Source: Fragilariopsis cylindrus CCMP1102
Lineage: Eukaryota > Bacillariophyta > Bacillariophyceae > Bacillariales > Bacillariaceae
Reading direction: 5' to 3'
Assembly (NCBI GenBank): GCA_900095095.1
Contig: FMBT01000404.1
Location: 1-64,000 of the forward strand
Length of the DNA: 64,000 bases
In this document: positions 18,280 through 52,999 of the stretch, one piece after another
How positions within the stretch are numbered: position 1 is the stretch's first letter
How the letters are laid out: every line of letters starts with the position of its first letter
Notes under the pieces: model-generated
The model's database searches: none
Seen by the model: only the letters and a program-made list of their open reading frames with translations
Told to the model about the DNA's origin: nothing
Program-made: the position numbers and the translations under genes

Positions 18280-18364
18280 CATTCGTGCGAATTTTTTTCG
18301 CACGAATGATCAATCGTGCGAAAATTTGAGAAAAAATTTCGCACGAATGATCATTCGTGCGAAA
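18280..18364. repeat. Left subterminal palindrome cluster
   Basis: Three overlapping or adjacent inverted repeats built from TTCGCACGAATG. The one at 18337-18364 is a perfect 28-bp palindrome centred on GATC and is identical to the one at 22371-22398. Such subterminal repeats are typical binding sites for transposase or accessory protein (inference). Confidence 0.9.
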
Positions 18365-18918
18365 TTTTGCGAAATTGTTTTGCACAAATGCAAAAAATAA
18401 ATAAATATTTCTAGTTATTTAAATTACCTAATACCCTAGAAAAATGTTATTCTATGTGTCTGTCTGTGGTCGGTCAATATTCGACTAGCTCGATCACTTT
18501 TTTAATTATATTTTTGATTCAAATTTTGTCTCAAATCGAAAATATTATCAAATTCCACGTAGAATTCTACAGACACGTGCAGTACTGAAACTGATTTCAT
18601 AGGGGGTAGTCCACAAAATTTGAAGAATAATTTTATTTCAACAGGGTTGTACCATTTAGATCTTTTATAGTTTTTTTATTTTCAAATGAATGGCGAAGAA
18701 GGGTTGACAAGTGATTAAATCCGGGTTACTATTAGATGTTATAAAAATGTACGAAGTTATGTTTGGAGTTTGAAAATCGAAGATGTAAAGAAAAGACGCG
18801 TATTTTACACGGGATTGCACTTTTTTAAAAACCACAGCAAACATTTTTTCTAACACGGTATCAACATTGCCCTGTTGTTATCGCTAACCAAGCTTCACAA
18901 AATAATATTATAGTTACA

Positions 18919-21952: not shown

Positions 21953-22370
21953 TGTCAATGGACAAAAATGGAATTAAAAAAACAAGTTTAATAAAACAAG
22001 TGTGGTTTTTGTCAGCCTGTCAACTATACAGTATTAGTGCGTTTGAAGTGCTTTTTTGCTTTTTCAGGCGATACACCGTGTTGTAAGAAAAGTCATTTTT
22101 TTGTAAGCGTTAGAACCGTGTTGTAAGAAAAGAAATGACTAAGAGACAACTCCGTCGGTTATTTGACCCGGGAATAAGGTAACGTCATTTCACCAGCAAT
22201 GCCAGCGCTTTTGTGTTATACAACGGCTTTCTAATCCCGTGTGAATTCTATTTAAAATTAGATGTGACACATGCGACACAATAATTCTAGGGGGGGCATA
22301 GTAATTTGATCGCTTAGAAATATTTTAATTATACTAAAATAAATTTCACTTTTGTATTTTCGCGAAAAAA

Positions 22371-22439
22371 TTTCGCACGAATGATCATTCGTGCGAAAAA
22401 ACGCGAAAAAATTTCGCACGAATGATCAATCGTGCGAAA
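22371..22439. repeat. Right subterminal palindrome cluster
   Basis: Two 28-base inverted repeats, 22371-22398 (perfect, identical to the left one) and 22412-22439 (one central mismatch), joined by an ACGCGAAAAA spacer. Confidence 0.9.
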
Positions 22440-22532
22440 AAAACATGCTTATGAGAGGGGGCGTTATATTATCTGTTTTTTCAAACCACTGCCCCCCTTT
22501 GGTCGCGCGCGATGAAAATTAATAGTTTAACG

Positions 22533-30598: not shown

Positions 30599-33500
30599 CT
30601 ACGGTGGCTGAGTGATAGTCGCTGTCGTGAGGGTGACTTTGGTTTGCGAAAAGATACGACCGTTCAAGGAAGAATCAGTATCAAATGTAACAAAAGTCTT
30701 GACAAAGAGGAGGCCCACCAACTGTGAACGTGCGCCAACTGTAAACTCTTCAGCAACCGACCAGAATATGTTCTTTGCTAGCGCACCACCAGTGAGAACC
30801 ACATTGGTATCCGCGGATTGCAAAACTCTCTTCGATGTCTGAATGATGAAGACGTCTTCTGAGGTGCCGCTGAAGGTGAGGTCACCATTGATAAAAATGT
30901 CACCGCCAAATGTGTAGACACCGGGCCCCAACGTTTTACCGCCAATAAAGCCTCCAGTTCCGACATTAAGGAAATCTGCAGAAGTGGTACCACGTGAGGC
31001 TAGATCGTTATATGCTTCCTCCATGTCGGTAATTGCGTCGGACATTTCAACGGAAGTAGAAGGAGCGTAATCAGCCGCTTTGGCGATACCCGAAACCTGG
31101 GTACTAGTCGCAAACTTACGCGAGTTATCCAAGGCCAAATTGAATCCAAAAATAAAACCTGAATCAATCGGCGAGACGCCAATATCACCAGTAATAGTCG
31201 ATATGGAGTTAGTAGTAATACCAGCCTTTGCGAGAATGGCAAAGTCACCAGCAGTTCCAAGTTGGACATTCGGAGGTAAAGTTGGTTCTGAGCTAAAACT
31301 AGGGAAAAAGCTCGGAACGCCACTTGGTGTAAGACTGGGAATGGAACTAGAAACAGCACTTGGTCCGGAAGAAGGCACATTCGGCGGTAGAGTTGGTTCA
31401 ACGCTGGAACTAGGAGAAGAGCTGGGAACACCACTTGGTGTAAGACTTGGTAAAGAACTTGGAACAGCACTGGGTGCAAGACTTGGCCCAAAACTAGGCA
31501 AACCACTAGGAACCTCACTTGGGATGGAACTGGGTGCGCCACTCGGATCAAAACTAGGAGAAGAGCTGGGAACACCACTTGGTGTAAGACTTGGTAAAGA
31601 ACTTGGAACAGCACTGGGTGCAAGACTTGGCCCAAAACTAGGCAAACCACTAGGAACCTCACTTGGGATGGAACTGGGTGCGCCACTCGGATCAAAACTA
31701 GGAGAAGAGCTGGGAACACCACTTGGTGTAAGACTTGGTAAAGAACTTGGAACAACACTGGGTGCAAGACTTGGCCCAAAACTAGGCAAACCACTAGGAA
31801 CCTCACTTGGGATGGAACTGGGTGCGCCACTCGGATCAAAACTAGGAGAAGAGCTGGGAACACCACTTGGTGTAAGACTTGGTAAAGAACTTGGAACAGC
31901 ACTGGGTGCAAGACTTGGCCCAAAACTAGGCAAACCACTAGGAACCTCACTTGGGATGGAACTGGGTGCGCCACTCGGATCAAAACTAGGAGAAGAGCTG
32001 GGAACACCACTTGGTGTAAGACTTGGTAAAGAACTTGGAACAGCACTGGGTGTAAGACTTGGCCCAAAACTAGGCAAACCACTAGGAACATCACTTGGGA
32101 TGGAACTGGGTGCGCCACTCGGATCAAAACTAGGAGAAGAGCTGGGAACACCACTTGGTGTAAGACTTGGTAAAGAACTTGGAACAGCACTGGGTGTAAG
32201 ACTTGGCCCAAAACTAGGCAAACCACTAGGAACCTCACTTGGGATGGAACTGGGTGCGCCACTCGGATCAAAACTAGGAGAAGAGCTGGGAACACCACTT
32301 GGTGTAAGACTTGGTAAAGAACTTGGAACAGCACTGGGTGTAAGACTTGGCCCAAAACTAGGCAAACCACTAGGAACCTCACTTGGGATGGAACTGGGTG
32401 CGCCACTCGGATCAAAACTAGGAGAAGAGCTGGGAACACCACTTGGTGTAAGACTTGGTAAAGAACTTGGAACAGCACTGGGTGTAAGACTTGGCCCAAA
32501 ACTAGGCAAACCACTAGGAACCTCACTTGGGATGGAACTGGGTGCGCCACTCGGATCAAAACTAGGAGAAGAGCTGGGAACACCGCTTGGTGTAAGACTT
32601 GGTAAAGAACTTGGAACAGCACTGGGTGTAAGACTTGGCCCAAAACTAGGCAAACCACTAGGAACCTCACTTGGGATGGAACTGGGTGCGCCACTCGGAT
32701 CAAAACTAGGAGAAGAGCTGGGAACACCACTTGGTGTAAGACTTGGTAAAGAACTTGGAACAGCACTGGGTGTAAGACTTGGCCCAAAACTAGGCAAACC
32801 ACTAGGAACCTCACTTGGGATGGAACTGGGTGCGCCACTCGGATCAAAACTAGGAGAAAAGCTGGGAACACCACTTGGTGTAAGACTTGGTAAAGAACTT
32901 GGAACAGCACTGGGTGTAAGACTTGGCCCAAAACTAGGCAAACCACTAGGAACCTCACTTGGGATGGAACTGGGTGCGCCACTCGGATCAAAACTAGGAG
33001 AAGAGCTGGGAACACCACTTGGTGTAAGACTTGGTAAAGAACTTGGAACAGCACTGGGTGTAAGACTTGGCCCAAAACTAGGCAAACCACTAGGAACCTC
33101 ACTTGGGATGGAACTGGGTGCGCCACTCGGATCAAAACTAGGAGAAGAGCTGGGAACACCACTTGGTGTAAGACTTGGTAAAGAACTTGGAACAGCACTG
33201 GGTGTAAGACTTGGCCCAAAACTAGGCAAACCACTAGGAACCTCACTTGGGATGGAACTGGGTGCGCCACTCGGATCAAAACTAGGAGAAGAGCTGGGAA
33301 CACCACTTGGTGTAAGACTTGGTAAAGAACTTGGAACAGCACTGGGTGTAAGACTTGGCCCAAAACTAGGCAAACCACTAGGAACCTCACTTGGGATGGA
33401 ACTGGGTGCGCCACTCGGATCAAAACTAGGAGAAGAGCTGGGAACACCACTTGGTGTAAGACTTGGTAAAGAACTTGGAACAGCACTGGGTGTAAGACTT

Positions 33501-36500
33501 GGCCCAAAACTAGGCAAACCACTAGGAACCTCACTTGGGATGGAACTGGGTGCGCCACTCGGATCAAAACTAGGAGAAGAGCTGGGAACACCACTTGGTG
33601 TAAGACTTGGTAAAGAACTTGGAACAGCACTGGGTGTATTACTTGGCCCAAAACTAGGCAAACCACTAGGAACCTCACTTGGGATGGAACTGGGTGCGCC
33701 ACTCGGATCAAAACTAGGAGAAGAGCTGGGAACACCACTTGGTGTAAGACTTGGTAAAGAACTTGGAACAGCACTGGGTGTAAGACTTGGCCCAAAACTA
33801 GGCAAACCACTAGGAACCTCACTTGGGATGGAACTGGGTGCGCCACTCGGATCAAAACTAGGAGAAGAGCTGGGAACACCACTTGGTGTAAGACTTGGTA
33901 AAGAACTTGGAACAGCACTGGGTGTAAGACTTGGCCCAAAACTAGGCAAACCACTAGGAACCTCACTTGGGATGGAACTGGGTGCGCCACTCAGATCAAA
34001 ACTAGGAGAAGAGCTGGGAACACCACTTGGTGTAAGACTTGGTAAAGAACTTGGAACAGCACTGGGTGTAAGACTTGGCCTAAAACTCTGATTAGAGCTC
34101 AAACTTGGGTCAGTACTTGAACAGATGAGAGACTAGGAGCAGAGCTAATACTTGGTTCTTCACTTGAGTTAGCACTTGGTGTAAGACTTGGTCTAATACT
34201 TGGTACAGAAGATGTACTTGGAGCTAAGCTGACACTTGGTTCAAGACTTGGATTAGCGCTGAGCATCTGTACACCACTCGGAATCGAAGATGTGCTGGGA
34301 GCAGAACTGAGACTTGGTGCACCACTCGGATTAGAGCTCAAACTTGGATCAGTACTTGGAACAGATGAGAGACTAGGAGCAGAGCTAATACTTGGTTCTT
34401 CACTTGAGTTAGCACTTGGTGTAAGACTTGGTCTAATACTTGGTACAGAAGATGTACTTGGAGCTAAGCTGACACTTGGTTCAAGACTTGGATTAGCGCT
34501 GAGCATCTGTACACCACTCGGAATCGAAGATGTGCTGGGAGCAGAACTGAGACTTGGTGCACCACTCGGATTAGAGCTCAAACTTGGATCAGTACTTGGA
34601 ACAGATGAGAGACTAGGAGCAGAGCTAATACTTGGTTCTTCACTTGAGTTAGCACTTGGTGTAAGACTTGGTCTAATACTTGGTACAGAAGATGTACTTG
34701 GAGCTAAGCTGACACTTGGTTCAAGACTTGGATTAGCGCTGAGCATCTGTACACCACTCGGAATCGAAGATGTGCTGGGAGCAGAACTGAGACTTGGTGC
34801 ACCACTCGGATTAGAGCTCAAACTTGGATCAGTACTTGGAACAGATGAGAGACTAGGAGCAGAGCTAATACTTGGTTCTTCACTTGAGTTAGCACTTGGT
34901 GTAAGACTTGGTCTAATACTTGGTACAGAAGATGTACTTGGAGCTAAGCTGACACTTGGTTCAAGACTTGGATTAGCGCTGAGCATCTGTACACCACTCG
35001 GAATCGAAGATGTGCTGGGAGCAGAACTGAGACTTGGTGCACCACTCGGATTAGAGCTCAAACTTGGATCAGTACTTGGAACAGATGAGAGACTAGGAGC
35101 AGAGCTAATACTTGGTTCTTCACTTGAGTTAGCACTTGGTGTAAGACTTGGTCTAATACTTGGTACAGAAGATGTACTTGGAGCTAAGCTGACACTTGGT
35201 TCAAGACTTGGATTAGCGCTGAGCATCTGTACACCACTCGGAATCGAAGATGTGCTGGGAGCAGAACTGAGACTTGGTGCACCACTCGGATTAGAGCTCA
35301 AACTTGGATCAGTACTTGGAACAGATGAGAGACTAGGAGCAGAGCTAATACTTGGTTCTTCACTTGAGTTAGCACTTGGTGTAAGACTTGGTCTAATACT
35401 TGGTACAGAAGATGTACTTGGAGCTAAGCTGACACTTGGTTCAAGACTTGGATTAGCGCTGAGCATCTGTACACCACTCGGAATCGAAGATGTGCTGGGA
35501 GCAGAACTGAGACTTGGTGCACCACTCGGATTAGAGCTCAAACTTGGATCAGTACTTGGAACAGATGAGAGACTAGGAGCAGAGCTAATACTTGGTTCTT
35601 CACTTGAGTTAGCACTTGGTGTAAGACTTGGTCTAATACTTGGTACAGAAGATGTACTTGGAGCTAAGCTGACACTTGGTTCAAGACTTGGATTAGCGCT
35701 GAGCATCTGTACACCACTCGGAATCGAAGATGTGCTGGGAGCAGAACTGAGACTTGGTGCACCACTCGGATTAGAGCTCAAACTTGGATCAGTACTTGGA
35801 ACAGATGAGAGACTAGGAGCAGAGCTAATACTTGGTTCTTCACTTGAGTTAGCACTTGGTGTAAGACTTGGTCTAATACTTGGTACAGAAGATGTACTTG
35901 GAGCTAAGCTGACACTTGGTTCAAGACTTGGATTAGCGCTGAGCATCTGTACACCACTCGGAATCGAAGATGTGCTGGGAGCAGAACTGAGACTTGGTGC
36001 ACCACTCGGATTAGAGCTCAAACTTGGATCAGTACTTGGAACAGATGAGAGACTAGGAGCAGAGCTAATACTTGGTTCTTCACTTGAGTTAGCACTTGGT
36101 GTAAGACTTGGTCTAATACTTGGTACAGAAGATGTACTTGGAGCTAAGCTGACACTTGGTTCAAGACTTGGATTAGCGCTGAGCATCTGTACACCACTCG
36201 GAATCGAAGATGTGCTGGGAGCAGAACTGAGACTTGGTGCACCACTCGGATTAGAGCTCAAACTTGGATCAGTACTTGGAACAGATGAGAGACTAGGAGC
36301 AGAGCTAATACTTGGTTCTTCACTTGAGTTAGCACTTGGTGTAAGACTTGGTCTAATACTTGGTACAGAAGATGTACTTGGAGCTAAGCTGACACTTGGT
36401 TCAAGACTTGGATTAGCGCTGAGCATCTGTACACCACTCGGAATCGAAGATGTGCTGGGAGCAGAACTGAGACTTGGTGCACCACTCGGATTAGAGCTCA

Positions 36501-39500
36501 AACTTGGATCAGTACTTGGAACAGATGAGAGACTAGGAGCAGAGCTAATACTTGGTTCTTCACTTGAGTTAGCACTTGGTGTAAGACTTGGTCTAATACT
36601 TGGTACAGAAGATGTACTTGGAGCTAAGCTGACACTTGGTTCAAGACTTGGATTAGCGCTGAGCATCTGTACACCACTCGGAATCGAAGATGTGCTGGGA
36701 GCAGAACTGAGACTTGGTGCACCACTCGGATTAGAGCTCAAACTTGGATCAGTACTTGGAACAGATGAGAGACTAGGAGCAGAGCTAATACTTGGTTCTT
36801 CACTTGAGTTAGCACTTGGTGTAAGACTTGGTCTAATACTTGGTACAGAAGATGTACTTGGAGCTAAGCTGACACTTGGTTCAAGACTTGGATTAGCGCT
36901 GAGCATCTGTACACCACTCGGAATCGAAGATGTGCTGGGAGCAGAACTGAGACTTGGTGCACCACTCGGATTAGAGCTCAAACTTGGATCAGTACTTGGA
37001 ACAGATGAGAGACTAGGAGCAGAGCTAATACTTGGTTCTTCACTTGAGTTAGCACTTGGTGTAAGACTTGGTCTAATACTTGGTACAGAAGATGTACTTG
37101 GAGCTAAGCTGACACTTGGTTCAAGACTTGGATTAGCGCTGAGCATCTGTACACCACTCGGAATCGAAGATGTGCTGGGAGCAGAACTGAGACTTGGTGC
37201 ACCACTCGGATTAGAGCTCAAACTTGGATCAGTACTTGGAACAGATGAGAGACTAGGAGCAGAGCTAATACTTGGTTCTTCACTTGAGTTAGCACTTGGT
37301 GTAAGACTTTGAATCGAACTTGAAGCAGCCCTTTGCACAGAACTTGGCCCAAAACTAGGCAAAGCACTTGGAACCTCACTTTGGATGGAACTTGGTGTGC
37401 CACTCGGATCAAAAGTAGGAGTAGAGCTAGGAACACCACTTGGAACTTCACTTGGAAGTGAGCTGGGCAAATTACTTGGCCTTCCACTTGGATTAGCATC
37501 TGGAATAGAATTCGGAATGGAAGTTGGAATGGAGCTGGGTTTCAAAATAGGTTCATAACTCGGTGCACCACCGGGATCAGTACTAGGTGAAAGACTAGGA
37601 ACAAAACTTGGTGAAAGACTGGGATCTACACTCTGGTCAAGACTTGGAACAGAACTCTTAAGAGAACTTGGTGAAAGACTTGGCCCGATACTTGGTCTGG
37701 AACTAGGAGCAGTACTTGGGGCAGCACTTGGGACAGCACTTAGGATATCACTCGGTGCGCCGCTCGGATCAAGACTAGGAATAGAGCTAGGTACCATACT
37801 TGGCAAAAGACTTGGTTTTTGACTTGGAGGAGAACTTGGCAATGAACTTGGTACAGTACTAGGCAATAGACTTGGTTTCGAACTCGGGACAAAGCTTGGT
37901 GCGCCGCTCGGATCAAGACTAGGAATAGAGCTAGGTATCACACTCGGCAAAAGACTTGGTTTTTGACTTAAAGGAGAACTTGGCAATGAACTTGGTACAG
38001 TACTTGGTAATGAACTTGGTACAGTACTAGGTAATGAACTTGGTACAGTACTAGGTAATGAACTTGGTTTCGAACTCGGGACAAAACTTGGTGCTCCGCT
38101 CGGATCAAGGCTAGGGATAGAGCTAGGTACCATACTTGGCAAAAGACTTGGTTTTTGACTTGGAGGAGAACTTGGCAATGAACTTGGTACAGTACTAGGC
38201 AATGAACTTGGTTTCGAACTCGGGACAAAACTTGGTGCGCCGCTCGGATCAAGACTAGGAACAGAGCTAGGTACCATACTTGGCAAAAGACTTGGTTTTT
38301 GACTTGGAATAGAACTTGGCAATGAACTTGGTACAGTACTAGGCAATAGACTTGGTTTCGAACTCGGGACAAAGCTTGGTGCGCCGCTCGGATCAAGACT
38401 AGGAATAGAGCTAGGTACCATACTTGGCAAAAGACTTGGTTTTTGACTTGGAGGAGAACTTGGCAATGAACTTGGTACAGTACTAGGCAATGAACTTGGT
38501 TTCGAACTCGGGACAAAACTTGGTGCGCTGCTCGGATCAAGACTAGGAACAGAGCTAGGTACCGTACTTGGCAAAAGACTTGGTTTTTGACTTGGAAGAG
38601 AACTTGGCAATGAACTTGGTACAGTACTAGGAAATAGACTTGGTTTCGAACTCGGAACAAAACTTGGTACTATACTCGGCAAAAGACTTGGCAATGAACT
38701 TGGTAGAACACTAGGAACTGAACTTGGTTTCGAACTTGGAACATGACTTGGAGCGCCGCTCGGATCCAGACTAGGAATGGAACTAGGAGTAGCACTCGGT
38801 GAAAGACTTGGAAGGGAACTAGGAGTAGCACTCGGTGATTGACTCGGAAGGGAACTAGGAGCAGCACTTGGTGAAAGACTTGGAAGAGAACTGGGTGCAA
38901 GGCTGTCACTTGGTTCTGAAGATTTGGTTGGTACAGAACTAGGTGCAGCACTTGTAGTTGGCGCATTACTTAAGCTGGGTAGATTACTAGGCAAAGAACT
39001 CGGTGCCAAACTAGGGTTGGAACTAGGAAAGGAACTAGGGAAGGAACTAGGGATGGAACTTGGTTCATCACTAGGAGTGGAGCTAGGAACACCACTGGGA
39101 GCAAAGCTAGGAACAGCGCTCGGATCAAGACTTGGGATGGAACTGGGTGCAGTACTCGGCGATAAACTTGGTTCCAAACTGGGCAAGCTACTTGGTGAAA
39201 GACTGGGACCTACACTTGGGTCAAGACTTGGAATAGAACTTGGAAGAGCACTTGGAGCAGAACTAGGACCACCACTTGGAAGACCGCTTGGATCAGAACT
39301 AGGACCATCACTTGGAACTACACTTGGAAGACCGCTCGGATCAGAACTAGGACCACCACTTGGAACTACACTTGGAATAGAGCTGGGCAAATTACTTGGC
39401 TTCCCGCTCGGATTTGCACTCGGAATGGAACTTGGAATGGAACTTGGAATGGAACTGGGTTCCAAACTAGGGTCGTAACTCGGTGCACCACTCGGATCAG

Positions 39501-42500
39501 AGCTAGGGGAAAGACTAGGAACAGAACTTGGTGGAAGACTGGGACCTGCACTTGGGTCAAGACTTGGAACAGAACTCGGAAGAGAACTTGGTGAAAGACT
39601 TGGCCCGAAACTCGGTCTGGAACTAGGAGCAGTACTTGGGGCAGCACTTGGGACAGAACTCGGTGCGCCGCTTGGATCCAGACTAGGAGCAGAGCTAGGA
39701 GAAGCACTCGGATCAACACTCGGTACTGCGCTTGGATCCGCACTAGGATCCGAACTAAGAACCTCACTGGGAGCAAGACTTGGGATGGAACTGGGTGCAG
39801 CACTCGGCGATAAACTTGGTTCCAAACTGGGCAAGCTACTTGGTGAAAGACTGGAACCTGCGCTTGGGTCAAGACTTAGAGCAGAACTGGGGTCAAGACT
39901 TGGAGCACTACTAGAACCACCAGTTGGCACAGAAGTAGAACTAGAAGTCGGCGGAGAAGTTGTTGAGGAGAGATCGCTTCCACTGGAACTAGAAACTGCA
40001 CTTCCACCAAAACTCCCAGAAAAGCTGGGAACATCACTTGGTGTAAGACTTGGAATGGAACTTGGAATGGAACTTGGAATGGAACTTGGAACGGCACTTG
40101 GTACAGAACTTTGCACAAACTTCGGATCAGTACTTGGAATAGATGAGATACTAGGAGTAGAGCTAATACTTGGTCCTTCACTTGAGTTAGCGGTCAAACT
40201 TGGTCCAGTTCTTGGTATAGAAGTGGTGCTTGGAGCATAGCTTACACTTGGTTCAACACTTGGATTAGCGCTTAGCATCTGTACACCACTCGGAATCGAA
40301 GATGTGCTGGGAGCAGAACTGAGACTTGGTGCACTACTCGGATTAGAGCTAGAACTGGATGAACTACTCGGAACGGATGATGTACTGAGAGCAAAGCTGA
40401 GACTTGGTTCACCACTCGGACTAGCGCTCAAACTTGGTTTTATACTTGAAATAGAAGAGGTAATTGGAGCTGGACTGACACTTGGTTCACCATTAGGATT
40501 TTTGCTCAGTATCTGTACATCACTTGGAACAGAAGATGTACTTGGAGCTGAGCTGAGACTTGGTACAGTACTCGGATTAGAGCTAAAACTGGGTGCACAA
40601 CTTGGATCAGATGAAATGCTAGGAGTTGCACTAATTCTTGGTGCACTACGCGGTACAGGACTTGTACTTGGAACTGAACTGAGACTGGGTCCACCACTCG
40701 GAAGAGAAGATGTAGTAGGAGGAGAGCCAAGACTTGGGGCATTAGTTCTAACAGAAAATTCGGTAGGAGCCATGCTAAGACTTGCGACACCAGTGGGAAC
40801 AGAAGATCTACTAGCAGGAGACCTTAGACTTGGTTGAACACTCGGAATATACGATCTACTAGGAGTAGAGCTAAGACTTTTCTCGGTTGGTCCATCATGC
40901 GGTGATTGTGTGAAACATTTTTCCTTACATGTCGCAGGACAAAAGAATTTTATTTTCTTTCTAGTACCCGGTTGTTGCTTATTGCATCTCGTATTGGGGT
41001 TTTCTGCAACATATGCATCACATGTCTTAGTGGCATCGCCTTCAAAACGAAAAAGTTGAGAATTTTCACATTCACCACGTTCTATGAATGTAGGAGAATC
41101 GGTTTCTAATACTACCGGTGAGTCAGTAGGAGAATCGTTCGGTGCATTAGCCGTTGATGGCAACTGACATTTTCCTTTACATGTCGCGGGACAAAAGAAT
41201 TTAACTTTCTTTCCGGTACCAGATTGATACTTTCTACATCTCCTGATTGGTCTTTTTGCAACGTATTTATCACAGGTTTTAGCGGCATCACCTTTAAAAC
41301 GAAAGAGTAGAGAGTTGTCGCATTTACCACGTGGAAATTGACATTTTCCACTACATGTCGCGGGACAAAAGAATCTGACTTTCTTTCCGGTACCAGGTTG
41401 ATACTTTTTACATCTCTTGATTGGTTTCTTTGCGACGTATGTACCACAGGTTTTAGTAGGATTACCTTCGAAACGAAAGAGGAGAGAATTTTCACATCTA
41501 CGACGTTTTTGGAATGTAGGAGAATCAGTCTGTGATATTGTGAGAGAACTCGGTGTAGAACTTGGTAAAATGCTGGGCCTGTAGATTGGATTTGAACTTG
41601 GAATGCTGTGATCCAACGAAGAGGGTAATGCAGCTTTACATTTAGTTTTACAAATCGCTGGACAAAAGAATTTGACATTTATTCCTGTAAAAGGATCACT
41701 ATGCTTGCATCGCTTAGTAGCTTTTGCCGAGACCCATGTAGAACAATCCTTGTCTTGTGCATTATTGAAACGAAAAGTATCGCTATCTTCACATTCTCCT
41801 CGTTCATCAGTTGGTAAGGATACTATAGTCGGCAATATAGTAGGCGATATTGTCGGTGATATTGTCGGCGATATTGTCGGCGATATAGTAGGCGATGCAT
41901 TCGCGCCTTTTCCTGACGATTTAGTTGAAACATTCGAACCTTTTCCTGATGATGACTTAGTTGACAAATTCGAACCTTTTCCTGACGATGATTTACTTGA
42001 CAAATTCGAACCTTTTCCTGACGACGATTTACTTGACAAATTCGAACCTTTTCCTGACGATGATTTAGTTGATTTCGTTTGAGATACATCATTCAATTTT
42101 CCATTTCCTTTACCAGTACCGGTACCCTTTGTGGCTGTTTTTGATTTCTTTGATTGTATTGGTTTGAATCCTTTTGACGTGCTAGACTTTCCAGTATTCT
42201 TCAGTGAAACTTCAGATCCTTTCGACAATGACGATGACGACTTCTTTCGTTTTCCTTTTCCTTTTGAAGTTTCTTTTCTTGACGATGATTTAGTTGACGA
42301 ATTCGAACCTTTTCCTGACGATGATTTAGTTGATTTCGTTTGAGATACATCATTCGATTTTCCATTTCCTTTACTAGTACCGGTACCCTTTGTGGCTGTT
42401 TTTGATTCCTTTGATTGTATTGGTTTGGATCCCTTTGACGTGCTAGACTTTCCAGTATTCTTCGATGAAACTTCAGATCCTTTCGACAATGACGATGACG

Positions 42501-43044
42501 ACTTCTTTCGTTTTCCTTTTCCTTTTGAAGTTTCAGTTAGTTCACGTCCTAAAGCTTCGTCTACATTGGAATTTTCGTTCCTATAGTTGCCATTAGCATA
42601 GACACTGTTGTATACATATTCATGAACACTGCCTTCAACAGTAGATTGTCGTAAAAAATCAATGTAGGTATCCTTGACGAACAATACAGATTCTTTTGTG
42701 GGGGTGGTGGTAATGGACAAGATCTCACCGCTATCGTTGCTGCTGTTGCTGCTGCTGTTCGTAGTGTTGGTGGTACCAATTATTATAATTGGAAGAGCAA
42801 TTTCACTTGAACGAAAAATGTTACCAGTACGAAAGATGATGGCAAAAAAGAACCCTGATACAACAACTAATAATATTGATAACAGCAATGAAAGTAACAA
42901 CAAAGAATTACTTCTTCCAGAACAACGCGATTGATGTCCCTGGTGTTGATCATCATCACCATCGTCATCCTCGTCGTCGTCATCCTCGCAACCATGGCGT
43001 TGTTGTGGTTGTTTTCTGTCGTATTCATCCCGGTGGTGTCTCAT
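30599..43044 (-). CDS. Giant membrane-anchored protein with Cys modules, PSxx stalk and C-terminal ice-binding domain
   Basis: One intronless gene of about 4,148 residues, read here as two open frames (43044-34099 and 34102-30599) because one base is missing at about 34114. The total length, 12,446 bases, is one short of a multiple of three. Order of parts: acidic cytosolic tail (1-46); membrane anchor (47-71); Asn/Ser/Thr linker; Lys/Ser/Gly-rich segment with a long direct duplication (172-380); four six-Cys modules (418-469, 517-568, 575-626, 659-710); a PSxx tetrapeptide stalk of about 3,200 residues with three tandem arrays; and a 222-residue DUF3494-type ice-binding domain (30602-31267). 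That domain shows LGTAGDFAILAKAGI, ITGDIGVSP, LGPGVYTF, GGALAKNIFWSV and GRIFSQTKVTL. A type II topology would place the ice-binding domain at the far outer end of the stalk. The role as ice adhesin is inference; DUF3494 proteins in polar diatoms bind ice. Confidence 0.85.
30602..31267 (-). other. DUF3494-type ice-binding domain of the giant protein
   Basis: 222 codons at the C-terminus. The family forms a right-handed beta-helix with an alpha-helix alongside. The pattern of conserved Gly, the TGDIGVSP motif and the AKNIFW motif match diatom, fungal and bacterial members. The domain has no signal peptide of its own, unlike stand-alone diatom ice-binding proteins, because the anchor at the far N-terminus serves the whole protein. 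Confidence 0.85.
31431..34075 (-). repeat. Tandem array, 144-bp unit, about 18 copies
   Basis: The unit encodes 48 residues, twelve PSxx tetrapeptides in fixed order: PSLT, PSAV, PSSL, PSLT, PSGV, PSSS, PSFD, PSGA, PSSI, PSEV, PSGL, PSFG. Copies differ by few bases. Adjacent copies share variants: LAPS instead of LTPS is restricted to the copies at the ice-binding-domain end, as expected from local duplication. Confidence 0.95.
34089..37309 (-). repeat. Tandem array, 240-bp unit, about 13.4 copies, virtually identical
   Basis: The unit encodes 80 residues with Ser/Pro/Asn/Glu-rich sequence (LSSAPSTSSIPSGVQMLSAN ... SANSSEEPSISSAPSLSSV). Internal copies appear identical base for base through the whole array. 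The only differences I find are in the partial copy at the 34.1-kb end, where a base is missing, and at the 37.3-kb edge. Confidence 0.95.
37755..38690 (-). repeat. Tandem array, 144-bp unit, about six copies
   Basis: A second 48-residue unit of twelve PSxx tetrapeptides (PSLD, PSGA, PSFV, PSSK, PSSL, PSTV, PSSL, PSSP, PSQK, PSLL, PSMV, PSSI), less uniform than the other arrays. One copy has three extra short PSTV-PSSL pairs. Confidence 0.85.
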
Positions 43045-45315
43045 AATAAGTTGGGATAGGGATCTCTCCTTTATATAGTCTCTATCTACTCTTGTTGAGA
43101 CTGAGTGTGTATGAAATACCCGATGATCGGGGTGTTTGTGGTCGTGATTCTAGTCAATATTAACGTGGGAACACTTATTTGCTTCTTTGCCACTGGAGAA
43201 TTGATTTTCTGTTGCAGTTGAAGACCTCTCTTTATCATTACCAGCGCGCAAAGTTCTCTGGAGCATTGAGGTTGGTTGCTTTGAAGAAAAAGGTCGATAT
43301 CTCTTTCTTTTATCCATATTTGCATTCGAAATCGTAGTCGTCTTGTACCGTGTGATAAACGTGAAGTGAAAATTACCATGTAATGGTAGTTTGAAATTTC
43401 ATAAAACTCAACGGTTCCCATGGGGGAGGAGTACAGTATATGACTTACGCAGTCTTATACATATTATATATATGCGTCCTAGCATATATTACAAGACATA
43501 TCATACTATATTATGCCTTCATTGTGTATTTTTCATTTCTGATGACTACAAAAACTGGCTGTTACGACACGGAAGGTGCACTCTTCGACTCATTCTTCGC
43601 GTCGTATCACAAATGGCTTCAACAGAGCGTTGTTTCCCTCAAAAACCGTGCTTTTAGATTCAACATGAGATAAAAGAAAATGTGTTCTCCTGGGGCAAAG
43701 GTGCAAAAGGTGGGAAGTTGGACGAATCATCGGAATCGTGGTAGTCGCGTCGTCGTATCACAAATATCAGTCAAATTAAATAACCTACTTTCAATTTTAA
43801 CAGCCTAATTAGAAAAGGAAAATCGGGTACGGTTTTTGATTGATATTTCACGACGACTACCACATGAGCACGAGTACACGAAGCGAAGTTTAACTTCCCC
43901 TTCTTTTTCCGGAAGTTAAACTTCGCTTCGTGTACTCACGTAGTCGCGTGAAATATTCTGTTGAAAAAAGAAAATGGGGGTTTTCAGGGGCAATTGTAAC
44001 TGGAAAAAGAAGCGGAAATTAAACTTCGCTCGTGATGCTCTTCGTATAACGAAAAATCACTAAAAACGCAGGTCATTTTCAAAAACCAAAATAGTCAAAA
44101 ATATTATAACCAGTTAAAAACATCAGCCTGATACAATTATTATTTAATAATTGTCATGGCGAAGAATAATTTTAGATAGGTCGTACCATTGTAAGTAAAA
44201 CTGTAGTATAAGATGCATTTGTTATCATTCCATGTACGAATATAAAAACTAAATCATGCCCAAATTGTACTAGTATTTGTTAGTCTAGTATATAAGAACA
44301 ACTTAAGCATCAACTATATACACCTAAAAAGTCATTTTTTTGGAAAAAAAACATGAATTTTACAATTGACCTATTGGATGGAGAGCTATTATATTCCTTA
44401 TTCTCCTAAGCTTACTGGTATCTCATAATGTAGGCTCATACATAGCACACATCATCTTTTTATGAGATATCTTGTTCAGGACACAAAGCAGGGTAGAACT
44501 TCCAGGAAAATGTTTTTTTTGGTCAGCGAGAGTTCGTCTACCTTATCACATGTGTAATAAATAATGGTTCCAAAATATGTGGTATGCACTCCTTCAGTTC
44601 ATGCACACATTCCTGCACTATGACGAGCCTTTAACGCACCATGTTACTAGTTAATTTGTTGCAGCTATTATTGTTGCTAGAGGAACTTTTTTTCGGAAAA
44701 TAAAGTGATGGAACCCATTATATGCTTAATATTTATATGCATGCAAGTCAATGGGTTTGACCAGGGGTTCACTTTCTTCGCCAAGGGCCAAACACCAATT
44801 TCTTCCCTATATTAGCTAAACTCCACTCAACATAATTTTGTACGAGGTGTAGCATGTGAACCAGAGGCCCTAATAGTTCCAGCTTTAGGTGGGGTAGGTA
44901 ACTATATGAGTATTTGTGTGGAAATAACTGTCAAAATTTGTTTTGGAGCATAAATCAGCCCACAGTGATTATTTTAAGTACGGTCCTTGACTGCATTTTT
45001 TATGATATATTCTTGAAAACAGGGATGAACTGCAATTACATCCAAAATAATGGTGGTTTGGGATGATGATGCTTTCCATTCACAAGTCATGTGTCCTAGT
45101 GAGGACAGTGAATCAATTTTGTGTTCTAATCTACCTGATGGTATGTGTAAATAAAGATAACGAAGAGCTGTGTTTTGGGCTATAATCTTACTGTGTAGTG
45201 CTAGTGTGGGATGGTGTGTTTATTTCTTATTTTAATATATAGAAATGACAGTAACAAATACAAGCTGTATTTATTTATCTTAACAAAAGTAGTATGAAGA
45301 TGGTTGGTTGGTGTT
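43045..45315. other. Intergenic region with long hairpin
   Basis: About 2.3 kb without a recognised gene. The hairpin at 43872-43937 is listed separately. The rest is AT-rich. A 111-codon minus-strand frame (43086-43421) has no coding features. Confidence 0.5.
43846..43957. repeat. Long inverted repeat (foldback)
   Basis: The core arms 43872-43898 and 43911-43937 are perfect reverse complements over 27 bases with a 12-base loop. The similarity extends outward, with gaps, through ATTTCACG...ACTAC on both sides, making about 50-bp imperfect arms. Shorter related pieces occur at about 44012 (GAAATTAAACTTCGCT) and 43744 (GTCGCGTCGTCGTATCA). A foldback MITE or small-RNA-type hairpin is possible. 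Confidence 0.85.
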
Positions 45316-46265
45316 TCAATGCAGCAGACACCAACTGGTAGATATGGGTATGTTTTGAAATTCATTTCGCAGTTGTGCAAGATTTTGATCAGGAATGAAC
45401 AACAAAATATATCTTATATGAAGGGGATGCAGAGGACAACACCATGGGTTGGGTGCACTAGCACCCACATAGAGTAATGGAGCATTGTGTTTGCCTCCTA
45501 CAACTTTTCTCTTCTTGTGGCTGCACAATGAAATTCATTTCACTGTTGTGGAAGGCACAAAAACAACAGGATGATTTTTGATCAGAAATGAACACAAAAT
45601 TTCTCATTTGAAAGGGATGCAGAGGACAACAGCAGCTGAGTCAGGTGCACAAACATTCACATAGTGTACTAGAACATTGTGTTTGCCTCCCACCCCTTTT
45701 CTATTCCTGTGGTTGAGGAATAAAATTTGTTTCACTGCTGTTGCATGCACAAAAATAACAAGATTTTTGACCAGAAATGAACAACAAAATATCTCATTTG
45801 AAAGGGTTGCAGAGGATAGCACCAAATAGGTTGGGTGCACTAATATCCACATAGTGTACTAGAACATTGTGTTTGCCTCCTACATCTTTTCTATTCCTGT
45901 GGTTGAGGAATAAAATACGTTTTGCTGTTGTTCCACCCACAAAATAACAAGATATTCAATCAAAATGAACCACAAAACATCTCATTTGAAAGGGTTCCAT
46001 AAGACAACACCAGCTGAGTCAGGTGCACAAACATTCACATAGTGTACTAGAACATTAGGTTTGCCTCGCCTCCCACCCCTTTCCTATTCCTGTGGTTGAG
46101 GAATAAAATTTGTTTCACTGCTGTTGCATGCACAAAAATAACAAGATTTTTGACCAGAAATGAACAACAAAATATCTCATTTGAAAGGGTTGCAGAGGAC
46201 AGCACCAAATAGGTTGGGTGCACTAATATCCACATAGTGTACTAGAACATTGTGTTTGCCTCCTA
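45316..46265. repeat. Tandem repeat array, about 190-bp units, five copies
   Basis: Units begin at about 45316, 45506, 45698, 45886 and 46079. Shared landmarks are TGTGGTTGAGGAATAAAAT, ATGAACAACAAAATATCTC and ACATAGTGTACTAGAACATT. Units three and five are almost identical, as are parts of two and four, so the array also has a higher-order unit of about 381 bases. Short open frames within it repeat and are not genes. Confidence 0.85.
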
Positions 46266-47699
46266 CCATCCTCGGTGGTTCATCATCACTTGACTAAACT
46301 AATTCTGATTGGTATCATTCTTATCTCACAAATTCACCAGTGGAGAGTTTGGTTATTGGAATATTAAACAACTCTGAATGATAAGATGAATAACTTCCTC
46401 TTAGGTTCTAGAACCAGCATGGTGCACAAAAATACCACCCAGTCATCCATCTCATACCCATAGGGGATGAACCAAGGGTCATAACCCCTCATATATACCT
46501 TATTCTTGCCTCCAGAACACAAACATTGCATTTTGGCCAATATGTCATATTTCCATGCCCAAAAGTATCATTCAGAAATAGGCTGCCACAACATCAAAAA
46601 AAGGAATTGGACCATGGTTTGAACACCCAGATACCTTCCATATATGCGTATGGTCAAAATACACCAACAATACTTGGAAAATTTGCCATATTGGTGGTGT
46701 GGTGGGGTGGGGAACAATAGAATAGACATAAATAGCCCAAAATGCACACATTGCAAAAATATTTGAGATGCTTTTGCGCCCATATCAGGTATGCTGAGTC
46801 CCAAATGAAATAGCTAGGCATCAACCTAACTCATTAAAGTTTGGGATTTAGGTAACCATACATATATTTGGGGTGTCACAGGTCAACACACAATTTCTCT
46901 GAGTGCCAAGTGTGCGCATAATCAAGGCCGTGATGCACCATCAATACAGACCTAATAACCTTGAAAGATTATATGGAGCTCAACATTATACATATGGGTA
47001 CAAGGTACAACTATTGCTTAGGGCTGTAGGGAGATTAGGAAGTTTCAAAAAGGGTCATTTAGGCCCAAAAACAGGTTTCCCCCTTTAGCGCCCACATCAG
47101 CATGGTCCTGCCTGATAACACTGCCCATAGCTTGCCAAGTTTATACTCCCTTTGGTGTATATGGTCAACACTATGTGCTTACTTTGGGGTACTTCATCTT
47201 TTTGAGTGTGTACTAGGTTACATACCCCCTCAAATGGGCCAGTTTCCCATGTCCTAGGCTGCATCACACACTCTACCACCTTCCAGTGTGAGGAACACAT
47301 ACCTAGCGCCCCAAAGTCCCGTCCAGGTATCCACCCTATGCATATTAAGCTCAGATTATACCATCTGATTGGGACTTTATACATGCTAGGATGGGTTAGA
47401 ATGCCAGACAGTGGAGTGGTACAGGTAGCAAGTACCACAGGACATGATTTAGTTTTTTTGCGTTATTTAAGGTAAAACCTAAATAAATACAAGCCTGTCC
47501 TTTGACTAGAGACTAAAGTGTTACTGAATAATTACTTTTTTTGGCTTAAAAGTCACAGTGTTTGCAATTAATTAAGAAGCCTGAGAAAGTTAAAGTGTGT
47601 TCAAAAACGTGTAAAGTTAAAATGTTTTGCCTGTAGTTTTCCATACTGGATCTTCTGATATATTTACTTGTTCCTTGTTCTGTTCCTAAGAACAGATAC
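46266..47699. other. Repeat-like non-coding DNA
   Basis: No gene. The composition (CA- and CCC-rich with few long frames) differs from the surrounding AT-rich DNA and could be decayed mobile-element sequence, but I find no protein motif. Confidence 0.35.
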
Positions 47700-49768: not shown

Positions 49769-51276
49769 ATGGGCAGCCCTCAAAAAAAGAAAGTGCAGCA
49801 GCAGACTAATGTACGAGTTGTGGCTCGGATCCGTCCTCTTGCTAAGTATGAAATAGAAAATGGGAGTAAACAAATCGTTACGTTGTTGCCTGGCGCTACT
49901 GGCAATATTAATAATAATAGCAAGGACGGCGACGGCGACGGCGAACAACATAATGATATAATAAAAATAAAAATTCCAACGGAACCAGAAGTATTACAAG
50001 TCCAAACAACGGAAAAACGTTGGTTTGAATTGGATGCGGTATTAGATGGAAAATCAACACAAAATGAAACCTATATAAAAAGTGGTGCTCAGCAGGCTGT
50101 CACAAAAGATATCTTTAAAGGATTTAATTGTACAATATTAGCCTATGGTCAAACTGGATCAGGGAAAACATTTACAATGGGATCTGCTGCATCAGCAGGA
50201 ATCGACGACCATGACGACGATGACGACGATGACGACGACGACGCATCCGATACTACTACAAGTAATGAAATAGGTGATCTGGATGGTATTATACCACGTG
50301 CATGTGCTGATTTATTCAATCATATACGTACACGTTGTGATGGTAATGCACAAGTTGAATTGTCATATTTAGAAATTTATAATGAAGAAATGAGAGATTT
50401 GTTAGTTTCATCATCTACTTCTACTTCTTCTGCTTCTGATAGTAATAATAAACCAGATAATAGCAGTAACAAGGTTGTTGAATTAAAAATTCGTGAAACA
50501 TTAAATGGTGAAGTTTATGTTGGTGGATTATCATCACGGCCTGTTAGTTCACCAAAGGAGATTGGTAAATTTATGGAAGAGGCAAGTAAGCGTCGTGTTA
50601 CTGCATCCACTAAGATGAATGCTGAATCGAGTCGGTCACATGCAATCTGCGTCTTACAGATCAAGGGTGTTTTAGAAGATTCGACAAAATTTCAAGCGAA
50701 GTTAACACTTGTCGATTTAGCAGGTAGTGAACGGATTAAAAAAACTGGTGCCGAAGGTGGTCGGCGACAAGAAGGGATTAATATCAATAAAGGATTATTT
50801 GTATTAGGACAGGTTGTGAGTGCATTATCCGAAACACGTCCCAAGTATAAAAGAAAACCACCCTATCGTGATTCGAAATTAACAAGGTTATTACAAGATT
50901 CGTTAGGTGGTAATTCTAGAACAATTATGGTAGCCTGTGTCAGTCCAGCTGATTTTAATTTAGATGAAACAATCACCACATTACGATACGCCACCAATGC
51001 CAGAAATATTAAAAATACAGCCACACGGAATGTTATTAAAAGTTTATCACCCGATGAGGCAGCGAAATTACAACGTGAAAATCAACTTCTATTAGCACAA
51101 GTGAAGGAATTACAAGAAACTATTCGTAAAATGTCTATTCCTGTTCCTGCTCCTGCTGACGAGGGTGATACTACTAATACTAGTAGTGGTGGTGGTGGCG
51201 GCGGCAAACAATCGACAGCAATAACATCATCGTCGTCTTCCACTTTGTTCCCGTCAGAAGAAGACGATGGCGATGG

Positions 51277-51312
<36 letters not shown>

Positions 51313-52999
51313 TGGTGATGAAATATCAATGAGTAAACGGAAAGAACGTATTAAGGAACTCGACGAGGAAGTTCGGCAACACAATTTGAAGTTGTCATCG
51401 TTGTCGAAAGTACCGTCTCAACGAATAATAACAGAAAGTATGGCACAGGATGCAATTGATTTACCTGATTTGCATAAACAAATTGCTACGCTAGAAGAAG
51501 AGGTTGCTGCTAAGGAGGAGGTGGAAATAGAAAATATGGAACTACAAGAAGAGATGCAAAATCTAAAAGCGGATGCAGATTCAGCACGGTTGGCTGCAAA
51601 TAAAATGTCTCAAATCTTAGAACAATTACAAGACTTGAAAGGAGATGAAATTGATAAGAAGAAAATGGAACATGATCATATTAAGAAAGAAGAGGCGTGG
51701 GTATCATTCGTCTTTCAAGTGTTACAAACGAATAACGAACAACTACAAAAATTACAAGATGAATATGGTGCAGTTTCACGTCTATTCGAATCTCCTGATT
51801 TCATAGGTGTAGTAGAAGAACAAAGGACAGGTTTCATGTCAAAGATGTTTAGGCGGAGAGGAGGAAACCGTCCAACTAACGTAGCGGTACGATCACCTAA
51901 CAACAGTAATCATGAACAAAAACAACAACAGCAGCAGAGTACGAATCAGTCGAATAATGAATCCGACGCACAATCGCATCGGGAAGGCAATGCACAAAAT
52001 AATAGTGTACAACGACCCAATCATAGTAGTAGTAGTAGTGATACTACTGCTGCCACCGATGAGACTAAACAGCAGCAGGAGCAGGAGCAAGAACAAGATG
52101 ATCCAAGAAATATTATGAAGGTAATTGTTAATTTGAAAGACGAATTGAAGGCTGCTCACGAAGTAATCCGACAACAGCGTGTTCAAGTAGAATGCGCGAT
52201 GCAGCAAAAGGAGGATGAGCAGAATAACGGTTCAACTACTACTACTACTGGTACGACTACTGATGCTACCACCACCAGTGATGAAACAACAAGTCATAAC
52301 AGCACAAGCACAGGCATAGACACAACACCTGTAGTGCCGATACTACGACCAGCAGATTCTCTAACTATTCCAACATCAGAATATCAAAATCTGAAAGCGA
52401 AATATACACAATTGGAAATAGATCGATGTTGGGGTGAATTTCAATTGAGAGATCGTATCACGAATGATTCATTAAAATTCCATCGACGTGTACGTGCTGT
52501 GATACAAAAAGCCAATGCCAACAATGCCAATGTCAAAACCAGTAATACCGTTGGTGGAAGTGGTGGAAGTGACACTAGTCCTGCTGTGAACAACGGTGGT
52601 AGTGGTTCAATTGAAGAAGAAATTAAAACCAAAGTTGATATGGAATTAAAACAACGATTAAAAACTGTGGAAGAACATTTACGATACTTTGAAGAACGAT
52701 TAATATCGATGGAAAATCATGTTAGTGATGAGATGAATTCATTGAAATCAATTCGTAATTCATTACGGATACAACGTGATGGATTAGAACTTGAAATTGG
52801 TACATCTGAAATTGAACGTCATATGATGCTTGCTGATGCTGATGATAAGGGCTGTGATGATGATGATGATAATGATCTATTAAAACAATTAACATCATTA
52901 TTAGTCGGTCCAGTGAAGAATCTTGGTAGTTATAACAACAATTCGTCACCAGATAATAATGACAATGCTTCTACTACTGATAATATCGACATATTATAA
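49769..52999 (+). CDS. Kinesin motor protein, kinesin-4-like
   Basis: 1,076 residues, single exon. The N-terminal motor domain spans about residues 14-416, with the VRVVARIRPL start, P-loop GQTGSGKTFTMG (about 128-139), switch I NAESSRSHAI (about 284), switch II LVDLAGSERIKKTG (about 313) and the YRDSKLTRLLQDSLGGNS helix, ending TLRYATNARNIKN. A short Asp run is inserted after the P-loop. Next come Gly/Ser/Asp-rich linkers, then heptad-rich coiled coils at about 560-670 and 860-980, interrupted by Gln/Asn/Ser-rich segments. The motor sequence around INKGLFVLGQVVSALSE and SLGGNSRTIMVACVSPADFNLDET most resembles kinesin-4 (KIF4/KIF21). Such motors act on microtubule plus ends in spindle midzones or flagella. 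The family call within kinesins is moderate. Confidence 0.85.

What the first reader, a model, noticed from the sequence alone, without database searches (positions are those of the whole stretch)
30599..43044. A giant, membrane-tethered ice adhesin in a eukaryote
One gene joins a type II membrane anchor, a Lys/Ser/Gly-rich segment, four six-Cys modules, about 3,200 residues of Ser-Pro stalk and a DUF3494-type ice-binding domain at the far end. Known diatom ice-binding proteins of this family are small and secreted. This layout instead resembles in principle, though not in sequence, the giant bacterial ice adhesin of Marinomonas primoryensis, which holds cells to ice on a long repeat stalk. 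If fully extended (about 0.3 nm per residue) the stalk could be close to 1 micrometre. It would let the cell stick to or sense sea ice. The domains are seen in the sequence; the adhesin role is inference.
Basis: partly seen in the sequence, partly recalled or inferred. Interest (0 to 1): 0.93.

Follow-up and report, generated by a model that had tools for sequence, protein, structure and literature searches.

The report
Giant stalked ice-binding diatom surface protein
A sea-ice diatom genome encodes a huge predicted surface protein in which an ice-binding-type domain lies beyond a roughly 3,200-residue Ser-Pro stalk, on a base shared with at least two relatives that carry other end domains; it would likely hold the cell to ice, but one base is missing between the two halves in this assembly, so the joining is inferred.

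Summary
The layout is real, with one correction. On the minus strand a 2,981-codon frame (43044-34099) encodes a predicted type II anchor, a Lys/Ser/Gly segment, four six-Cys modules and a Ser-Pro stalk. A second frame (34102-30599) encodes 944 more stalk residues and a clear DUF3494 ice-binding domain. The frames are offset by one base at about 34119, where the last repeat copy lacks a base that 13 sister copies have. A second copy of the locus, on contig C631, joins the same two arrays in frame but ends before the head. The head frame has no ATG before the domain. An assembly error is likely, not proven.

The genome is very likely Fragilariopsis cylindrus CCMP1102. The anchor region recurs at 14 loci (alleles counted apart): five are followed by a Thr/Ala-rich head, two by a chitin-binding head, one by DUF3494, six by none identified. 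An RXL motif, described as the likely processing site of silica-wall precursors, lies beside the Lys-rich segment, so the final anchor may be the silica wall. I read this as a giant surface ice adhesin made by fitting an ice-binding head to a wall-protein chassis. Short transmembrane ice-binding proteins of this species are in print; I found no report of the giant form.

The parts
42907..43044 (-). Predicted cytoplasmic N-terminus, aa 1-46, with an acidic stretch; in-frame stop upstream at 43150-43152
   Evidence: similar in paralogues at C303 and C587
42832..42906 (-). Predicted type II signal-anchor / transmembrane segment, aa 47-71
   Evidence: Kyte-Doolittle window maximum 2.95, the only window group over 1.6 in the 2,981-aa frame; no dedicated predictor was available
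42538..42546 (-). RXL motif (aa 167-169), the only one in the first 720 residues, 3 residues before the Lys-rich segment
   Evidence: aligned in 5 of 5 N-termini examined: C425, C631, C303, C614, C587; role of RXL from PMC4557024 passages
41890..42528 (-). Lys/Ser/Gly-rich segment, aa 173-385, silaffin-like in composition
   Evidence: the KXXK sub-motif is not enriched here
41638..41793 (-). Six-Cys module 1 (aa 418-469)
41341..41496 (-). Six-Cys module 2 (aa 517-568)
41167..41322 (-). Six-Cys module 3 (aa 575-626)
40915..41070 (-). Six-Cys module 4 (aa 659-710)
   Evidence: no Pfam family above cut-off in the module region
34102..40911 (-). Ser-Pro stalk, first part (2,270 residues), including the 240-bp tandem array 34085-37309 (13.4 copies)
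34099..34101 (-). Premature TGA caused by a one-base shift at about 34119 in the last partial 240-bp copy
31271..34102 (-). Ser-Pro stalk, second part (944 residues, other frame), including the 144-bp tandem array 31408-34087 (18.6 copies)
30602..31270 (-). DUF3494 (PF11999) ice-binding head, C-terminal; stop codon at 30599-30601

Best explanation
This is a giant diatom protein, predicted to sit at the cell surface, that likely works as an ice adhesin: a DUF3494 (ice-binding family) head that is likely joined, across a one-base shift in this assembly, to a Ser-Pro stalk of about 3,200 residues on a wall-protein-type base, predicted to be held first by a membrane anchor and then in the silica wall. 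Proposed steps: the type II anchor inserts the protein into the secretory membranes with the stalk on the outer side (predicted). A protease cuts at the RXL site between anchor and Lys-rich segment (inferred). The Lys/Ser-rich segment binds forming silica and the six-Cys modules lock the base into the wall (inferred). The Ser-Pro stalk, probably stiff and glycosylated, reaches up to about 1 micrometre out past the frustule (arithmetic, 0.3 nm per residue), and the DUF3494 head binds ice there (fold predicted with high confidence, binding not tested). The gene would have arisen from a chassis family with exchangeable heads, one copy of which received a DUF3494 head.
For: Head: PF11999 E 7e-53; model pLDDT 96.7; nearest fold 6a8k, 'Ice-binding Protein from a Sea-Ice Microalga', TM 0.96. 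Head joined in frame to at least 944 stalk residues without any ATG. Second copy C631 joins the two arrays in frame. Chassis family: anchor region matched at 14 loci with E <= 1.1e-5, self and alleles included, of 17 listed. Same-strand heads downstream: Thr/Ala-rich at 5 of 14 (C337, C680, C129, C131, C587), CBM_14 at 2 of 14 (C303, C614), DUF3494 at 1 of 14 (C425), none identified at 6. C303 is an intact 1,618-aa frame with anchor, RXL, K/G blocks alternating with W/Y, two six-Cys modules, Ser-Pro stalk and a CBM_14 head; in C337 anchor and head matches report the same 2,248-aa frame. RXL aligned before the Lys-rich segment in 5 of 5 N-termini compared. RXL, KXXK, K/W-Y alternation and chitin-binding domains are described for silica-wall proteins in PMC4557024 passages and RXL/KXXK in PMC5501833 passages.
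Against: One-base shift between the stalk halves in the only copy found that carries the head. No transcript, protein, localisation or ice-binding data. K[SG][SG]K occurs once in the window's Lys-rich segment, shuffled mean 2.2, and windows with five lysines are fewer than in shuffles (21 against 34.5), so silica targeting rests on composition and position. Allele comparisons give no sign of purifying selection (N/S changes 11.8/1.2 in the anchor region, 18/4 in the neighbour's head). The six-Cys modules have no Pfam match above cut-off, and their model is poor (pLDDT 48). Six of 14 chassis loci have no identified head, and alleles inflate the 14.
Confidence: 0.45

Rival explanations
1. One reading: the protein stays in the plasma membrane as a permanent type II tether and holds the cell to ice, shields the membrane, or senses ice.
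For: Clear hydrophobic anchor and no second one. At least four short F. cylindrus DUF3494 proteins also have a hydrophobic segment before the domain, and a review gives membrane protection or ice sensing as suggested roles of transmembrane IBPs (PMC8991070).
Against: RXL aligned beside the anchor in 5 of 5 N-termini. A membrane tether must pass the silica wall. Paralogue C303 with the same base carries wall-type features. The one short membrane IBP compared shares no N-terminal similarity with this one.
Confidence: 0.25
2. The frameshift is real: this allele makes a headless stalk protein, and the DUF3494 part is not translated, or only from an unfound upstream exon.
For: The shift is in the sequence at the boundary of two arrays, a place where recombination can break frames. 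The other copy ends before the head.
Against: C631 joins the arrays in frame. The head and 944 stalk codons are open with no decay. One indel in 12.4 kb is within the fosmid comparison of a published F. cylindrus PacBio assembly, 622 indels in 420,988 aligned bases, 0 to 4.6 per kb (PMC5634323 Table 3; these may include haplotype differences), if G000 is of that kind. A near-identical environmental head exists (P0003, 99% over 63% of the query).
Confidence: 0.17
3. It is the ice-specific adhesive strand of the raphe: the anchored stalk is coupled to myosin inside and to ice outside, and drives ice gliding.
For: Current model: myosin coupled through a transmembrane complex to adhesive EPS strands (PMC13056149 passages). 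Ice-gliding diatoms are reported (Zhang 2025, seen only as a reference title). A type II protein with a long stalk and an ice head would fit.
Against: No raphe localisation; motor binding was not tested; silica-wall features in the paralogues point elsewhere.
Confidence: 0.08
4. After RXL cleavage the whole stalk and head are released as mucilage or brine-channel IBP and do not tether the cell.
For: RXL lies outside the anchor; small DUF3494 proteins with secretion-type N-termini are present in this genome.
Against: The Lys-rich segment and Cys modules stay with the stalk after cleavage and look like a base for retention (inference).
Confidence: 0.05

Closest known systems
DUF3494 (PF11999) ice-binding proteins of F. 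cylindrus, PDB 6a8k (Ice binding protein 1)
   Same: Head domain: same family and fold
   Different: 6a8k is a single domain; here the domain sits on a giant stalk and base
F. cylindrus IBPs with transmembrane domains (FcIBP-1 and similar; PMC8991070 section 7)
   Same: Membrane segment ahead of DUF3494
   Different: Those seen here have open frames of 486-530 codons and no giant Ser-Pro stalk; the one compared has an unrelated N-terminus
Marinomonas primoryensis ice adhesin MpIBP (PMC5014055 abstract and passages)
   Same: Works like it in principle: ice-binding part on a very long repetitive protein at the cell surface
   Different: No domain of that protein was detected here; the stalk is Ser-Pro, the head DUF3494, the host a eukaryote
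Shewanella frigidimarina SfIBP_1 (6bg8), proposed DUF3494 ice adhesin (title seen in reference lists)
   Same: DUF3494 head proposed to tether cells; same fold
   Different: Bacterial; different extension
Diatom silaffins, cingulins and chitin-binding p150-type wall proteins (PMC4557024 passages)
   Same: RXL site, Lys/Ser-rich segment; paralogue C303 has K blocks alternating with W/Y and a CBM_14 domain
   Different: Apparent signal anchor instead of a plain signal peptide; KXXK not enriched in the window gene; ice-binding head
Type II-anchored stalk proteins of the same genome (C303, C587, C337 and others)
   Same: Anchor region; where read (C303 whole, C587 in part) also RXL, six-Cys modules and Ser-Pro stalk
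   Different: Heads are CBM_14 or Thr/Ala-rich instead of DUF3494

Membership tests
DUF3494 ice-binding domain (PF11999) | Match above the Pfam gathering score over the full profile | tested here: met
   179.8 bits against 28.7, positions 1-208 of 208
DUF3494 ice-binding domain (PF11999) | Beta-solenoid fold of solved ice-binding proteins | tested here: met
DUF3494 ice-binding domain (PF11999) | Binds ice | not testable with these tools
   needs purified protein
Bacterial RTX ice adhesin (MpIBP type) | Ca2+-binding beta-sandwich extender repeats and RTX repeats (partly recalled; RTX and extender wording also in PMC5014055 passages) | tested here: not met
   No such Pfam family at E <= 1 in the 2,981-aa part; stalk is 35% Ser, 21% Pro
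F. cylindrus short membrane-anchored IBPs | Hydrophobic membrane-type segment ahead of DUF3494 | tested here: met
   joining of the two across the frameshift is inferred
F. cylindrus short membrane-anchored IBPs | Homologous N-terminal part | tested here: not met
   One of the short ones compared (C456); no alignment better than E 12
Silaffin/cingulin-type silica-wall precursor | RXL processing site ahead of the Lys-rich part | tested here: met
   motif present; cleavage not tested
Silaffin/cingulin-type silica-wall precursor | Lys/Ser-rich composition (K >= 10%, S >= 18% in 100-200 aa; threshold recalled, Scheffel 2011) | tested here: met
   232 of 2,882 100-aa windows of the first frame pass, between aa 100 and 450; the first 1.9-kb piece of C303 passes in none
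Silaffin/cingulin-type silica-wall precursor | Clustered KXXK (X = S or G) | tested here: not met
   1 in the window segment, shuffled mean 2.2; C303 13 (whole protein) and C587 7 (N part)
Silaffin/cingulin-type silica-wall precursor | Cleavable ER signal peptide | tested here: inconclusive
   Hydrophobic stretch is long and preceded by 46 residues, more like a signal anchor; no predictor available
Diatom adhesive-trail proteins (vWD/GDPH) | vWD or GDPH domain (domains named in PMC7335047 passages) | tested here: inconclusive
   No vWD in the Pfam scans of the parts given; the second stalk part was not scanned; I know of no Pfam model for GDPH and did not test it

The most novel reading that the evidence does not exclude
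Sea-ice diatoms own a family of micrometre-long wall-anchored stalks with exchangeable heads, and one member has taken a DUF3494 head to become the first ice adhesin of a eukaryote, fixed in biosilica and fastening living cells, or their gliding strands, to ice.
Probability: 0.3. Interest if true: 0.93.

Novelty: new variant of a known kind. Interest (0 to 1): 0.72.

Why it matters
How sea-ice diatoms stay at the ice is an open question (my judgement), and the diatom ice-binding proteins that I saw described are discussed as secreted brine modifiers, membrane protectors or sensors. A stalked, surface-held head would turn attachment into a gene-level question. The head-swap family gives a natural experiment: same base with an ice, a chitin or a Thr/Ala-rich head. 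It would also link the silica-wall protein toolkit to cold adaptation.

Tried and rejected

Literature: searches showed no report of a giant stalked diatom ice-binding protein; some listings were capped (20 of 23, 15 of 42, 10 of 15 papers) and I saw mostly titles and abstract starts. Mock 2017, Zhang 2025 and Lachnit 2019 are not held, so absence from print is not shown.

Full report
What was checked. The finding lies on the minus strand. One search gives two long frames: 43044-34099 (2,981 codons) and 34102-30599 (1,167 codons). They are in different frames. The first holds the anchor, Lys/Ser/Gly segment, four six-Cys modules and 2,270 stalk residues; the second holds 944 stalk residues and the ice-binding domain. 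Total stalk is 3,214 residues, 35% Ser and 21% Pro with 646 PS pairs. At 0.3 nm per residue this is about 0.96 micrometre, an upper figure. The two tandem arrays (240 bp, 13.4 copies; 144 bp, 18.6 copies) make the stalk length variable: a 240-bp unit marker is counted 13 times here and 4 times in the second copy on C631, while a 144-bp unit marker is counted 17 times in each, although C631 ends inside that array.

The break. In 13 of 14 copies of the place in the 240-bp unit the sequence has two C's; in the last, partial copy one is missing, at about 34119, giving TGA at 34101-34099. Contig C631 carries a second copy of this neighbourhood: 91% identity over 3 kb from the Cys modules to upstream of the anchor (with 169 gap positions) and about 88% over 11 kb further along. 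It reads like the other haplotype; F. cylindrus is reported to have highly diverged haplotypes (PMC5634323, first and last parts of the text read). There the two arrays are joined in one frame, at another point of the repeat. That contig end is full of indels and stops inside the 144-bp array, so it does not reach the head. A published PacBio assembly of this species had 622 indels in 420,988 aligned fosmid bases (PMC5634323 Table 3, 13 of 13 fosmids summed), from 0 to 4.6 per kb; some may be haplotype differences. I cannot show that G000 (67.9 Mb, 818 contigs) is that assembly, which had 59.7 + 9.1 Mb. The head frame contains no ATG before the domain, so it cannot be an independent secreted protein without an unseen exon. 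I conclude that an assembly error is more likely than a true break.

The organism. P0045 (246 aa), named antifreeze protein, partial, of Fragilariopsis cylindrus CCMP1102, is encoded letter for letter by the neighbouring gene at C425:69k, so the window is very likely F. cylindrus. The best named F. cylindrus protein in the list for the window's own head is only 60% identical (P0004); a 148-aa environmental protein is 99% identical over 63% of the query (P0003).

Architectures in the same genome. One search lists 53 DUF3494 matches in G000, counting fragments and alleles; I read flanks for part of them. From the regions compared: small proteins with a secretion-type N-terminus; at least four short proteins (C456, two on C297, one on C520) with a hydrophobic segment ahead of DUF3494; proteins with a Lys- and Cys-rich part ahead of DUF3494 (C447, C674); and proteins with repeats of the 'MFxxAxxFNQ' kind (BspA-like, label recalled) and a short Ser-Pro linker. 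Giant stalked ones are this one, C425:75186-69241 (1,982-codon frame, 1,477-residue stalk), its second copy on C631 and C19 (both with frame breaks). Transmembrane IBPs are already in print for this species (PMC8991070 section 7).

The chassis. The anchor region (aa 45-172) matches 17 places with E <= 0.1, of which 14 (self and alleles included) have E <= 1.1e-5. Looking downstream on the same strand: a Thr/Ala-rich head lies at five of the 14 (C337, C680, C129, C131, C587), a CBM_14 chitin-binding domain at two (C303, C614, which look like alleles over the 100 codons compared), DUF3494 at one (C425), and at six I identified no head (C631, C439, C770, C459, C108, C807). Two chassis genes appear unbroken: C303, read completely, 1,618 aa, and C337, where anchor and head matches report the same 2,248-codon frame (not read). 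C587 was read in two pieces with a gap and has a frame change between anchor and Cys modules, so frame breaks are not peculiar to the window gene. A type II anchor, Cys modules and Ser-Pro stalk in one frame with a C-terminal head is thus a real design in this genome (C303), and the window gene is that design with an ice-binding head.

Wall or membrane. An RXL triplet, seen once in the first 720 residues of the window protein, lies three residues before the Lys-rich segment and is aligned in five of five N-termini compared, three of them independent; I did not check the other loci. A review suggests RXL as a general cleavage signal of silica-protein precursors (silaffins, frustulins, cingulins, silacidins), and describes cingulins as KXXK stretches alternating with W/Y-rich parts and chitin-binding domains in p130/p150 (PMC4557024 passages). 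C303 has K/G blocks alternating with SWGGYY-type blocks and a CBM_14 head. In the window gene the composition fits but KXXK is not enriched and five-lysine windows are fewer than in shuffles. I therefore favour a silica-wall anchor but hold the membrane tether as a serious rival.

Verdict. The corrected description is a chassis-and-head protein with a frame break that is probably an assembly error, and probably a surface ice adhesin. Adhesion, cleavage, silica binding and ice binding are all inferred.

Noticed in passing
G000 C425:75186-69241 (minus), about 5 kb beyond the window end (L009, L010): A second giant stalked DUF3494 protein: one 1,982-codon open frame with 1,477 stalk residues; its N-terminal exons appear to be several and differ from the window gene.
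   Followed up: partly
G000 C587:17235-17699 and seven other places: A Thr/Ala-rich C-terminal head of about 155 residues without a Pfam family above cut-off, the commonest head found on this chassis (5 of the 8 loci with an identified head).
   Followed up: partly
L052 (C303:217901-219900), downstream of the CBM_14 stop: A Ser-Pro fragment resembling the window's 144-bp repeat unit lies after the stop in another frame, perhaps a trace of head exchange.
   Followed up: no
G000 C456, C297, C520 (L018, L019, L020): Short DUF3494 proteins with a membrane-type segment and a coil- or EF-hand-like N-terminal part (label by eye), probably the transmembrane IBPs already in print.
   Followed up: partly
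G000 C674:243466-245442 (L017) and C513, C640, C202 (L014-L016): A gene with three divergent DUF3494 copies, and genes joining BspA-like repeats (label recalled) to a divergent DUF3494 domain.
   Followed up: no
window 45378-46267: A roughly 190-bp tandem array (4.7 copies) upstream of the gene.
   Followed up: no
window 18296-18374 and 22361-22442: Two related 41-bp direct duplications built on a palindrome-like unit (TTTCGCACGAATGATCAATCGTGCGAAA).
   Followed up: no
window 59123-59424: A perfect 150-bp tandem duplication inside an open frame.
   Followed up: no
window 49769-52999 (+): A kinesin motor protein gene (PF00225, E 2e-95).
   Followed up: no
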